From Conoideocrella luteorostrata (taxonomy: Eukaryota; Ascomycota; Sordariomycetes; Hypocreales; Clavicipitaceae), in NCBI GenBank assembly GCA_032433595.1, contig JASWJB010000153.1, positions 1 through 64,000 of the forward strand: DNA of 64,000 nucleotides, read 5' to 3'. The stretch's first letter is position 1. Every line of letters starts with the position of its first letter. Both the position numbers and the translations under genes were made by a program. Below the pieces are notes generated by a model. That model was not told the DNA's origin. It did no database searches and saw only the letters and a list, made by a program, of their open reading frames with translations. Below are positions 51,081 to 55,645 of the stretch, piece by piece.

Positions 51081-51244
51081 TGTTGGAATTGGAAGGAGAG
51101 GTTCAAATTTGATTGTATTGATGGGAAGAGCTGTGTTACTGTGATGGTGGATGCAGAATCCCTCGTCTGACGGTCCCGTCCAAATCCCCCTATAAATACC
51201 CCTATAATCTGAGACACTTCCGTCCTGAATTCCTGCCTGAGGCC
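51081..51244 (-). repeat. Left (3') LTR of the Copia element, truncated
   Basis: TGTTGGAATTGGAAGGAGAG to CTGCCTGAGGCCCAG matches 55407-55572 closely; the remaining 70 or so bases of the LTR are missing. Confidence 0.85.
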
Positions 51245-51299
51245 CAGACGCGGTCTTCCGTATTATCGGCGAATAAGGCATCTGATGACCCTAGGAATG

Positions 51300-51844
51300 C
51301 CGTATCGTACGGGATATCTAACGAATTTTCTGATGAATTTTCCGATGAATCTGACGGATTCTGAGGATTTTCGCTGCCTAGTCTGAGACCTAAGGAGCGT
51401 GTGTGGAAGAGGTATTGAATAACTCGGTCAGCAGTGTCGTGATGGATAACGCTAGGATTTACGTTGTGCCGACCAAGACGACTAGCTGCAAAGGTAATAT
51501 CTGGCCTCGTAGAGATTGCCGCAAATAATATCGACTTGACCTTCTGTTGAAATTAATGAATATATTGACTTATGGCCTGCTGGCTTGATTTCAATAATTC
51601 CTCGAGGCCTAAGGGCGTTGCCGGCATGTTAGTCAGGTCCACGTTGAATTTGTGGGCAATCTTATCAATATACGCATCTTGCGTGAGCTAAATATGCCTC
51701 TTTTTTCTATCCCTTGAAATATAAATTCCAAGGAACCAACTTGGCTCGCCTAGGTCAGTCATCTTATATCGATGCTTTAGACCTTGAATTGCTGACATTG
51801 CTCAATCCTTAGATTCCCGTGGAAATGTGTTAAACATTTACTCC
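51300..51844 (-). pseudogene. Copia RT thumb and RNase H fragment
   Basis: On the minus strand: HRYKMTDLGEPSWFLGIYIS, then LTQDAYIDKIAHKFNVDLTN and KSILFAAISTRPDITFAASR, all standard blocks following the RT active site of fungal Copia elements. A TAG and other stops interrupt it. It continues from the RT piece whose other half lies inverted at 52246-53708. Confidence 0.82.
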
Positions 51845-52245
51845 GAGACATTCGGGATGTTGCAGTTGGTACTCTCTCGACACGCGTTACAAATCAGCTA
51901 CCGTCGCTCCAAGGCCTTCATTTACGGCTACGTGACATTGGCGCCTGTCTGCAGAAAGTTTTAGATGGGTAATTACCAGTAAACCATGCAATTCTAGGAA
52001 ATCTCTAGGATTTCTTTAATCTGTTGCTAAACTTATCTAGCCCCGAGCGCGATAAAAAGTCTGGTACTGGAGAATTAGCATACGCTATGAGCATTAAGAC
52101 GAATGATCAACTTATGGCTTTTCTATCTGAGCAGTTTGATAAGGGTCATTACAGTTTTCCACGATCTTATAGAGAACAAAATACAGATCAGGCAGAAACA
52201 GGAGGAGAAGGAAGCAAAGAAGGAATAGCTGGAAAAGCCCGTACG
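51845..52245 (+). pseudogene. C-terminal half of Rpn8 (26S proteasome regulatory subunit), inverted
   Basis: Frames read HLLRDIRDVAVGTLSTRVTN, LPSLQGLHLRLRDIGACLQK, LPVNHAILGNL, then LAYAMSIKTNDQLMA and LIENKIQIRQKQEEKEAKKE. These are the C-terminal blocks of Rpn8/PSMD7, a scaffold MPN protein of the 19S lid that pairs with the deubiquitinase Rpn11. There are two in-frame stops and one frameshift near 52118. No intron is seen. The N-terminal half lies on the opposite strand at 53709-54783, and the last residues there (EAEEAEE) precede the first ones here in the normal protein. Confidence 0.85.
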
Positions 52246-53708
52246 AAGGGGTCTTCAAAAGGAAGCCAGAAATCGCGCACTTACGCGCGTATGGATGCAA
52301 GGCATTCGCGATGACCTCCGCAGCCCGGCGACGACATCATCGTAGGCAGAAGCTCGACCCAAAGGCACATATTGGATATCTTGTAGGATACCAATCGTCA
52401 AATAATTTCCGTATCTGGATTCCTCACAGGAATAAGGTTATGGTGGGTTGCACAGGGTGGTGTGCATGATTGACTTCAAAAGTGCAAAAACAATGTATTC
52501 AAGTCTGTCTATCTAAGAAGAGGAAAACAAGTGAGGGTTGAACGCTCGATATCGCCGTATAAATATCGTAGCGGAAAGGTGACCAGGTGACCTGCTCCGT
52601 GCTTCCTATTGTGCTTAACGGCAGGATTCCAACAGTTATTGTGACTCGCGATGTTATTTTCGATGAGGCTCGCATCTTTGAAGATAAGCTGCCCGTCCGG
52701 AAAGTGCTGCAGTCAATTGACGAGCTAGTTGAAAAGGTCGGAATTCCGGAAGGTCTGCAAGGCCTAGAGGACGAATTAGCTGCTGAAAATATCGAGGAAA
52801 TTAGTAGCACTTCTAGCCACACAGACAACGGATCTGAGTCTTAACGTACAGGACGAAATCGTCGTCAATACCGGTCAACATGAAAGTCAGGAAAATTCGA
52901 CTGCCTCGTGTGACGATTCTGATGAGGGTTATCGTACGGAATCAGAAGTCAGTCAGCAGGCGGTTTTCGCCACGTCAGCCGCTTATCTTGAGGGGGGTGG
53001 AAGAAGACCTCTGTGACCGATTTCGTGACTTTCAATTGGAACCTATTGAATCGGCCGTACAAGGAGCATTCCTGGCTGGAATCCGAGGTCAAGATCAAAG
53101 GCTGCACAAGCGGAATCTGCCAATTTGCCCGGGATCTAGGAAGGACCTAGATAGGCAGCCTTTCCGTGACGAATTTATCGAGGCGCAACGCGTGCATCTG
53201 GAATCACACAAGCAAATGGATTCATTTGAAAAGGTCCCTAGGTCTAGGTCTAAAGGTCAGCGAATTCTAGCCTACAAGTGGGTTTACACATACAAGACCG
53301 ATAGGCACGGATTCCTTCAGAAATGCAAGGCACGCCTTGTTGTGTGGGGAAACCAGCAATCGAAAAATGACCTGCCTACGAGGGCAACAACGCTTGCAAG
53401 CCTATCATTCCGGATCCTGATGACCTTGGCAGCTGAATATGACCTTGAGCTAATCCAGCTAGATGCTGTCAATGCATTCGTCAATTGCGACCTTGACGAG
53501 GTTGGTACATGAAAATGCCGCCCGGATACGAGGAATTCGGAAAGGTCCTATGGCTTAAGAAAGCCCTCTATGGTTTGCGACGGTCGCCTCGTCTATGGCA
53601 ACGAGAGATAGCCAAGGCACTAGAAGACCTAGGATTTCGAGCTATTCCAGAAGAGCCGTGCCTGATGCGAAAAGACTTGATATTCGTGTTCTTCCTCGTA
53701 GACGATAA
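52246..53708 (+). pseudogene. Copia integrase C-terminus to RT active site, inverted
   Basis: It starts with IAHLRAYGCKAFAMTSAARR and IGYLVGYQSSNNFRIWIPHR (end of integrase). After the inserted LTR come VTRDVIFDEARIFEDKLPVR, then the RT: YKWVYTYKTDRHGFLQKCKA, DLPTRATTLASLSFRILMTL, LIQLDAVNAFVNCDLDEV, MKMPPGYEEFGKVLWLKKAL and the active-site FFLVDD. One base is lost at about 53505. Preservation of the frame is far better than in the gypsy element, and there is no RIP signature. Confidence 0.85.
52442..52634 (-). mobile_element. Solo LTR, family A, reverse, inside Copia pol
   Basis: Plus-strand ends GGTGGGTTGCACAGGG and ATTCCAACA, perfect target duplication GTTAT (52437-52441 and 52635-52639). 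The first base is changed from T to G. Confidence 0.9.
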
Positions 53709-53929
53709 AATTCCTCCGCTTCTTCCGCTTCAATGATGGATGGCGTATGAACGAAAGTCCTAGAGGTCGTAGTACCGTCGTCTTTGATTTCCTCTGCAGC
53801 GAAATACGCATCAGTTGGTACGCCAGACTCTTTGGCTGAACATCGATGATAACAAGCAGTGGATTTGGCGTGTATCGCTTGAATAACTCGTTGATTTCGA
53901 GATCTGATGCTCGGAGTTTGGGACCGGAG

Positions 53930-54057
53930 TGTAAGGTTCTGGCGCGCGCAGCGCGTAGGCCTTATAAATAGGTGTAAGGTGCAGTGCAAGCAGTCGCTTG
54001 CATTGACGGATCTTTTTGGTCTATTGGGTAACAAGCACACCTTCTCGTTATCTTACA
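53930..54057. mobile_element. 128-bp MITE inside the Rpn8 copy
   Basis: Ends TGTAAGGTTCTGG and CGTTATCTTACA form short inverted repeats (TGTAAG). A 6-bp duplication CCGGAG flanks it (53924-53929 and 54058-54063). Joining the flanks restores the Tyr-His-Ser-Gly-Pro-Lys frame of Rpn8. The family is unknown. Confidence 0.8.
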
Positions 54058-54232
54058 CCGGAGTGATACCATACGATCAACTTTTCTCGGGCGTTGACTT
54101 TCTTGAACATGTCATTCATGGACTCCACATAGTTATGGTCTAGGAACCAAACGGAAGGGTCCCTATCATCCTCCTCAAATGGTACCGCAAAAGCGGTTCG
54201 ATACTCTCACGTTTTTGCCGTCGTTCTGCCCT

Positions 54233-54438: not shown

Positions 54439-54544
54439 GCCCTAGCAAAACACCTACTACCCGCCTTTTTGTCTTGTTCTTAACTATGCGGCTATAGTGG
54501 TTAATAGTGGAGAGCAGGACCAAAGGTGCCGTAGACACGTTCTG

Positions 54545-54739
54545 TGTGGGTTGCACAGGGTTCTCTGCAGCGATCTAGATCGTTGGCTTCCAATTGAATA
54601 TATTCATAAGTGTCTGTTATCCAAGAAGAAGAAAAGAAGTCAAGATGAGAGGCACGATATCGTCGTATAAATATCGTGGCTAGAAGGTGACCTCGTGACG
54701 AGCTCTGTGCTTCCTATTGTGCTTGGTGGGATTCTAACA
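54545..54739 (-). mobile_element. Solo LTR, family A, reverse, inside Rpn8 near the start codon
   Basis: TGTGGGTTGCACAGGG to GGATTCTAACA, 195 bp, perfect target duplication TTCTG (54540-54544 and 54740-54744). Confidence 0.93.
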
Positions 54740-54783
54740 TTCTGAGTGACTAGTGAAAGCGTTTCTGCGGTGGCAGTAGACAT

Positions 54784-55054
54784 AATATCTTATCTCAAAT
54801 GTATAATAATCAATTAAAAAAATAAGACTGTGTGGGCACGTCGAAGAGAAACCAAAATTTCGTGAATATTAGTTCCGCGGTCAAGGCACGTGGACGACTG
54901 GCTGCCTTGCAACGGGATCCTAAACTGATTGGCAACCCCAGCAGTTATCGCAGCCTCCCAGGGGAAACGTCCCCTTGTGCAAGGAGCTTATTCTAACCGC
55001 CTTTTGGCGAAAAGATAGGTCAGGATGTAGGGGCTCGCAATGGAGATAATGCTG
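54784..55054. other. Sequence between Rpn8 start and Copia gag
   Basis: No gag-like or Rpn8-like protein seen. AT-rich close to the Rpn8 ATG; it may hold the 5' leader of the captured gene or worn gag. Confidence 0.4.
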
Positions 55055-55291
55055 TTAGCTTCGCATCCGCCAAATAGTTAAGGTCGGCTTGCCTAGCAGC
55101 TTCTCAGTGGCATCAGGGTTGAAGTCAATCAGAAGAGGCTTCCTTGGTTCAGCTAATAGGAAGGGTTTGTCCCCGGACTTAATAGCGTTCCAGGTAGCTA
55201 ATTCTAGCTTGCTTCCGATGTAATCGAGCCATTCACGCCAATTGACGACGCCTGTGAGGGTGACGAGCTTCTTGACTTGAAGGGTAGTCAT
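55055..55291 (-). pseudogene. Copia gag N-terminal fragment
   Basis: MTTLQVKKLVTLTGVVNWRE with a following WLDYIGSKLELATWNAI: a Thr-Gly/Asn-Trp start of the type found in fungal Copia gag proteins. It begins about 115 bp inside the right LTR, as expected for the 5' end of a minus-strand element. It stops after 78 codons. Confidence 0.6.
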
Positions 55292-55406
55292 GATAATGGA
55301 TAGGATATTGGATAGGATATTTGAAGGGTTATAATAGGGAGGGAAATTGCTCGATGCCTTGATAGATAATCTGATTGCAGAGTATAGCGAGTACCGGGCT
55401 CATAAC

Positions 55407-55645
55407 TGTTGGAATTGGAAGGAGAGGTTCAAATTTGATGGCATTGATGGGAAGAGCTGTGTTACTGTGATGGTGGATGCAGAATCCCTCGTCTGACGGT
55501 CACATCCAAATCCCCCAATAAATAACCCTATAATCTGAGACACTTTGTCCTGAATTCCTGCCTGAGGCCCAGTGGCCACGTAACCTTTCTCTCACAGCCC
55601 GTGTACCCACATATCCACCCACACACACACACGCGTAATCCAACA
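55407..55645 (-). repeat. Right (5') LTR of the Copia element
   Basis: TGTTGGAATTGGAAGG to CGCGTAATCCAACA, 239 bp, with terminal TG/CA and the TTACT duplication outside. Confidence 0.85.

What the first reader, a model, noticed from the sequence alone, without database searches (positions are those of the whole stretch)
51081..55645. A Copia retrotransposon that captured the Rpn8 proteasome gene
Seen: gag start, Rpn8 N-half, Rpn8 C-half and Copia pol lie between one pair of Copia LTRs with a shared TTACT duplication. Reversing 51845-53708 alone rebuilds LTR-gag-Rpn8-integrase end-RT-RNase H-LTR, with both Rpn8 and RT becoming continuous at the same two breakpoints. That coincidence is strong support. 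The Rpn8 copy has no intron along about 310 codons, and its gaps are inserts with target duplications. Inference: it was copied from mRNA and transduced by the element, as known for the Bs1 element of maize. I know of no fungal Copia carrying a proteasome subunit.
Basis: partly seen in the sequence, partly recalled or inferred. Interest (0 to 1): 0.88.

Follow-up and report, generated by a model that had tools for sequence, protein, structure and literature searches.

The report
Copia element carrying a spliced Rpn8
A decayed fungal retrotransposon holds a copy of the host's Rpn8 proteasome gene that was made from spliced messenger RNA and stitched in at short matching sequences, a natural fossil of how such elements pick up host genes.

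Summary
At 51081-55645, on the minus strand, lies one Copia-type LTR element flanked by a TTACT target duplication. Between the start of gag and the end of integrase it carries a copy of Rpn8.

The native gene, on another contig of the same genome, has two introns (66 and 121 nt); its spliced protein is identical to a 345-aa Conoideocrella luteorostrata protein. The window copy lacks both introns exactly and also holds 329 nt from upstream of the native ATG. It stops near codon 310, without poly(A), and runs into Copia integrase. Both joints fall on 4-5 nt of shared sequence (the 5' one partly inferred).

The LTR pair differs at 7 of 166 sites and copy versus native at 62 of 1249 (P = 0.85), which fits capture and insertion in one cycle. 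Genome searches found Rpn8 only at the native locus and here.

Separate alignments confirm an internal inversion, with breakpoints 51821 and 53710/53711; a relative on C142 shows the RT ends side by side. Inserts, frameshifts and stops mark a dead copy.

Best reading: two template switches between Copia RNA and spliced Rpn8 mRNA. The mechanism is known from plants, yeast and animals, so this is a new member of a known kind.

The parts
51076..51080 (.). target-site duplication TTACT, left copy
51081..51247 (-). 3' LTR, cut: lacks about 70 nt on its inner side
   Evidence: 95% identical to the LTR at 55407; alignment
51248..51820 (-). end of reverse transcriptase and following pol sequence (RNase H by position only), in original orientation
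   Evidence: RVT_2 profile positions 187-241, E 1.8e-5, 24.9 bits, under the curated cut-off of 31.6; DNA match 81% to copies on C142 and C2 over 51253-51806; no RNase H family hit
51821..52224 (+). Rpn8 C-terminal half (native C53:109366 to about 109770), inside the inverted segment
   Evidence: 94% over 418 columns, alignment running to 52235; for the end
52220..52224 (+). 3' capture joint, AAGGA shared by native Rpn8 and the Copia copy on C419
52220..52441 (+). integrase C-terminal (SH3-like) region of Copia, inverted
   Evidence: PF25597 E 5e-17; 91-92% DNA match to C433 and C419
52442..52634 (+). 193-nt solo-LTR-like insert with duplication GTTAT
52635..53710 (+). Copia pol from after the integrase end through reverse transcriptase up to VDD, inverted
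   Evidence: RVT_2 profile 10-94 and 100-169; DNA matches to C419, C433, C142, C51
53711..54783 (-). Rpn8 N-terminal half, from the start codon position (54783-54781) to the inversion breakpoint, both introns absent (exon joins at about 54185/54186 and 53778/53779), with three inserts
53930..54057 (.). 128-nt insert with duplication CCGGAG
54233..54438 (.). 206-nt solo-LTR-like insert with duplication GCCCT
54545..54739 (.). 195-nt solo-LTR-like insert with duplication TTCTG
54784..55113 (-). sequence upstream of the native Rpn8 start codon (329 nt in the native gene), inferred 5' untranslated region
   Evidence: 93% match to C53:108326-108662, the only other match in the genome for this part of the query
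55114..55291 (-). start of gag, about 60 codons; 5' capture joint at 55113/55114 with shared ATGC(C)
   Evidence: protein-level matches on C97, C224, C126, C21 and C22, ending at query residues 61-64, the joint being at 60/61; joint
55394..55406 (-). conserved leader after the LTR (GTTATGAGCCCGG), probable primer-binding site
   Evidence: the same 13 letters follow the LTR in L015 and L017; the tRNA assignment is recalled, not tested
55407..55645 (-). 5' LTR, 239 nt
   Evidence: about 40 matching places, the window's two included, with 40 of 242 candidates scored
55646..55650 (.). target-site duplication TTACT, right copy

Best explanation
Inside a virus-like particle, Copia reverse transcriptase was copying Copia RNA from its 3' side. 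In the integrase region it jumped to a co-packaged spliced Rpn8 mRNA at a 5-nt match, copied that mRNA back into its 5' leader, and jumped back to Copia RNA in gag at a 4-5 nt match. The resulting chimeric DNA, with two LTRs, was integrated at a TTACT target by integrase supplied in trans, since the chimera lacks most of gag, the protease and the integrase core. Later a segment of about 1.9 kb inverted, four small elements inserted, and the copy decayed. SHOWN: single element, target duplication, exact intron absence, sense orientation, short match at the 3' joint, equal divergence of LTR pair and gene pair, inversion, decay. INFERRED: the particle, the order of the jumps, supply of proteins in trans, the parent element's letters at the 5' joint, the time of the inversion, and that the upstream 329 nt were part of the mRNA.
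For: The native gene C53:108655-109879 has introns of 66 and 121 nt with GT...AG ends; its spliced product is 100% identical to a 345-aa NCBI protein of Conoideocrella luteorostrata whose listed contig length, 173434, is that of C53. The copy has neither intron. The 3' joint shares AAGGA, with near-match AGCTGGAAA beyond it, and no poly(A). The 5' joint shares ATGC(C) with the native gene; five gag relatives end their match within four residues of it. LTR pair 7 of 166 versus copy/native 62 of 1249, Fisher P 0.85. One copy only besides the native gene. Integrase end precedes RT, as in Copia. A relative on C142 has the two RT ends next to each other.
Against: The mRNA must begin at least 329 nt upstream of the start codon, and no transcript data were available. 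Shared stretches of 4-5 nt can arise by chance, and the 5' one rests on gag relatives that encode Asp-Ala, Ser-Ala or Val-Ala there; none of the five shows GATGC itself. Only part of the LTR candidates was scored (40 of 242), so a closer LTR elsewhere is not excluded. The published draft of this species that I found is a short-read assembly; whether the window comes from it is not known (620 contigs and 46.4 Mb here, 864 scaffolds and 47.4 Mb there).
Confidence: 0.92

Rival explanations
1. A processed Rpn8 pseudogene made by a LINE-type element inserted into a Copia copy that was already there, followed by deletion of the Copia middle.
For: Intron absence alone fits it. LINE-made chimeric pseudogenes are known in a filamentous fungus (PMC2104539, abstract and section list seen).
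Against: No poly(A) at the 3' joint, the copy ends inside the coding sequence, no direct duplication seen around the Rpn8 piece at the two joints, and gag from about codon 61 to the integrase end is missing where Rpn8 sits. Gene pair and LTR pair have the same divergence.
Confidence: 0.04
2. Capture at the DNA level of an Rpn8 copy, with the two introns lost separately.
For: The copy includes sequence upstream of the start codon that could be promoter rather than transcript.
Against: Both introns are absent to the base, and no intronless Rpn8 intermediate was found in the genome.
Confidence: 0.02
3. The inversion, or the whole mosaic, is an assembly error.
For: The window's contigs may be short-read based; the published draft of this species is.
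Against: The element has no long inverted self-match at the breakpoints; only GGAA/TTCC is shared. The pieces carry copy-specific substitutions and clean duplications.
Confidence: 0.04

Closest known systems
Bs1 element of maize
   Same: LTR element that took up pieces of host genes; described as gene transduction, with retrocopies of three cellular genes (passages of PMC5408686 and PMC7264820)
   Different: Several genes in a plant element; here one, a proteasome subunit, in a Copia element of a fungus, in one copy, and dead. Bs1's own papers are not held
Ty1 retrosequences and processed pseudogenes of Saccharomyces cerevisiae
   Same: Ty1 (of the Ty1/copia group, recalled) reverse transcribing cellular RNAs in a fungus (passages of PMC7175516)
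   Different: Those passages describe occasional events in yeast; here an old natural insertion in a filamentous fungus with both switch points readable
LTR-mediated retroposition in animals (Tan et al. 2016)
   Same: Template switching between LTR element and mRNA at microsimilarity (as summarised in PMC5408686, passages; original not held)
   Different: Animal hosts
LINE-made chimeric pseudogenes of Magnaporthe grisea
   Same: Template jumps between RNAs in a filamentous fungus (abstract of PMC2104539)
   Different: Made by LINE reverse transcription; components are two retrotransposons and a non-coding RNA
Transduplication by DNA transposons in Pyrenophora tritici-repentis
   Same: Host gene piece carried inside a fungal mobile element (passages of PMC3538342)
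   Different: DNA transposons, no RNA step

Membership tests
Ty1/copia LTR retrotransposon | Two LTRs and a 5-bp target duplication | tested here: met
   TTACT; LTR pair 95% alike
Ty1/copia LTR retrotransposon | Integrase upstream of reverse transcriptase; RVT_2-type RT | tested here: met
   PF25597 then PF07727, both on + within the inverted segment; RT end on - (below curated cut-off)
Ty1/copia LTR retrotransposon | RNase H after RT | tested here: inconclusive
   no RNase H family hit in the two pieces scanned
Ty1/copia LTR retrotransposon | Primer-binding site after the 5' LTR | tested here: inconclusive
   Conserved 13-nt leader in 3 copies; an exact 16-mer matched only the window itself, so no tRNA gene
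LTR-mediated gene transduction (Bs1-like) | Host gene copy between LTRs of one element | tested here: met
LTR-mediated gene transduction (Bs1-like) | Introns of the parent gene removed | tested here: met
   two of two introns in the captured span absent
LTR-mediated gene transduction (Bs1-like) | Short shared sequence at the switch points | tested here: met
   AAGGA at the 3' joint; ATGC(C) at the 5' joint is partly inferred
LTR-mediated gene transduction (Bs1-like) | Further multiplication of the chimeric element | tested here: not met
   Rpn8 matches only the native gene and this copy; not a requirement for capture
LINE-type processed pseudogene | Poly(A) tail and target duplication around the gene copy | tested here: not met
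   joints printed

The most novel reading that the evidence does not exclude
In a genome with repeat-induced point mutation, the introns of the parent split the homology with the intronless captured copy into stretches of about 516, 272 and 470 nt, and this let an essential gene and its duplicate escape heavy mutation; RNA-level capture would then be a favoured route of gene duplication in such fungi.
Probability: 0.2. Interest if true: 0.7.

Novelty: new member of a known kind. Interest (0 to 1): 0.48.

Why it matters
It gives a natural fossil from a filamentous fungus in which the template switches, the removed introns, the target site and the relative age can all be read from one locus and its parent gene. 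It shows that a Copia element of an insect-pathogenic member of the Hypocreales has picked up spliced host mRNA, and it gives a case for asking how captured copies of essential genes fare where repeat-induced point mutation operates.

Tried and rejected
A first idea, that a Copia gag remnant sits upstream of the native Rpn8 and that read-through transcription made the 5' part, was rejected. The 2.9 kb of native upstream sequence printed show, by eye, no LTR and a divergent gene that I take for adenylate kinase, and gag relatives stop matching at the joint. The other JAB-domain loci (L001, L002, L003, L005, L008) are paralogues by eye (Csn5, Rpn11, eIF3f, AMSH-like and Csn6; names recalled), not sources. 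A 16-nt tRNA match to the leader gave only the window itself. Literature: 10 searches, of open-access PMC papers only. The titles and abstract starts listed showed none on a filamentous-fungus LTR element with a captured proteasome gene; one search listed 12 of 116 and 12 of 15.

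Full report
What is there. The window is the start of contig C153 of a 46.4-Mb, 620-contig genome. The spliced product of the native Rpn8 gene on contig C53 is 100% identical over 345 residues to an NCBI protein of Conoideocrella luteorostrata, whose listed contig is 173434 nt long, the length of C53. The organism is therefore taken to be this scale-insect pathogen (Hypocreales, Clavicipitaceae). That is inference from identity, not a label on the genome.

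The element. On the minus strand, an LTR of 239 nt (55645-55407) is followed by a leader that begins GTTATGAGCCCGG, also found after the LTR in L015 and L017, and by about 60 codons of gag. The gag stretch matches, at the protein level, five other places in the genome at 38-52% identity. At the other end is a cut LTR (51247-51081). TTACT lies on both sides. A 168-nt stretch of the right LTR matches the left one at 95%; the next best match is 91% (40 of 242 candidates scored). This is best read as one element.

The captured gene. Native Rpn8 has exons C53:108655-108841, 108908-109179 and 109301-109879, and introns of 66 and 121 nt with GT...AG ends. By blastn the window carries native positions 108326-108841, 108908-109179 and 109301 to about 109770 in pieces of 89-100% identity, with both introns missing to the base. 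The copy therefore begins 329 nt upstream of the start codon and ends near codon 310 of 345. PDB sequence matches name the protein RPN8 (best E 9e-124).

The joints. At the 3' joint the native gene reads ...AAAGAAGGATGAAGCTGGAAAC, the Copia copy on C419 reads ...CACAAAGGAATAGCTGGAAAAGCCC, and the window follows the native gene up to AAGGA and then the Copia copy. At the 5' joint the window reads ...AACCCTGATGCCACTGAG and the native gene ...CACCACCATGCCACTGAG. Five gag relatives end their similarity at query residues 61-64, the joint being at 60/61, with Asp-Ala, Ser-Ala or Val-Ala there; none shows the window's own letters, so the 5' match is partly inferred. Short shared sequence, lack of poly(A), and sense orientation are what template switching during minus-strand DNA synthesis would leave.

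One event. The LTR pair differs at 7 of 166 sites (one gap besides) and the gene pair at 62 of 1249; Fisher P 0.85. Capture and this insertion look equally old. DNA searches with the native gene and with the upstream region find only the native locus and this one, and the JAB domain search agrees (8 matches; two native pieces, one here, five paralogues by eye). The chimera lacks most of gag, the protease and the integrase core, so proteins from intact relatives must have moved it (inference).

Inversion. Native Rpn8 position 109369 is at window 53711 on minus, and position 109366 at window 51821 on plus. The reverse transcriptase profile runs through positions 10-94 and 100-169 on plus, up to about 53703, and 187-241 on minus below 51820 (24.9 bits, under the curated cut-off of 31.6). 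Direct evidence comes from a relative on C142 (L052): one unbroken stretch, 1874-1994, matches window 53657-53706 and then 51819 back to 51766, with 18 nt between the two matches against 5 nt in the window. So the RT ends now 1.9 kb apart were neighbours, about 13 nt being lost here. The same C142 copy carries this stretch in the opposite direction to its integrase part, with 46 nt present twice in inverted orientation, and the C51 copy (L053) also has a small inverted RT piece. Inversion in the RT region is thus not unique to the window copy, and an origin during reverse transcription or by self-integration is not excluded. The inversion was tested by separate alignments, without rebuilding the element.

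Decay. In the aligned part, substitutions fall 15/14/13 on codon positions 1/2/3; 28 change the residue and 14 do not, with about 10 silent changes expected without selection. There are two new stops and four small insertions or deletions in coding sequence. C-to-T (G-to-A) changes relative to the native gene are commoner at CpA/TpG (18 of 168) than elsewhere (13 of 420; P 0.0007), while the reverse direction shows no such bias (6 of 150 against 12 of 420; P 0.59). This hints at mild repeat-induced point mutation of the copy, but without an outgroup the direction is not certain. The element's overall indices are ordinary (0.76 and 1.22), unlike the block at 38001-44000 (1.82-1.92 and 0.24-0.27).

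What is known. Template switching between LTR element RNA and cellular mRNA at microsimilarity is described in the passages I saw of PMC5408686. Ty1-made processed pseudogenes in yeast are described in PMC7175516 (passages), and Bs1 and plant captures in PMC7264820 (passages). In filamentous fungi I saw LINE-made chimeras (PMC2104539, abstract) and DNA-transposon transduplication (PMC3538342, passages). My searches, limited to open-access papers, listed no LTR element of a filamentous fungus with a captured proteasome gene. This is therefore a well-documented new member of a known kind rather than a new kind.

Noticed in passing
window 38001-44000: About 6 kb of 26-27% GC with TpA/ApT 1.82-1.92 and (CpA+TpG)/(ApC+GpT) 0.24-0.27, the mark of heavy repeat-induced point mutation, so this genome has or had that process.
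   Followed up: partly
L052 (C142:37514-40905) and L053 (C51:45731-48968): Two other Copia copies also carry inverted RT pieces; L052 has 46 nt (1455-1500 and 1951-1996) as a perfect inverted pair and lacks part of RT. Inversions at RT may recur in this family.
   Followed up: partly
G000:C2:30934-31458: A match to window 51248-51820 that starts and ends at the same query positions (6-559) as the C142 copy; the rearranged form may have multiplied.
   Followed up: no
window 52442-52634, 54233-54438, 54545-54739: Three copies of a roughly 200-nt repeat (mostly TGTGGGTTGCAC...CCAACA; ends vary a little) with 5-nt duplications, matching dozens of places in the genome; probably solo LTRs of another Copia family.
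   Followed up: partly
window 25028-25909 (-) and 34907-35782 (-): Open frames matching Amidase (PF01425) and phosphotransferase APH (PF01636).
   Followed up: no
window 21428-21500 (+): tRNA-Arg, anticodon CCT.
   Followed up: no
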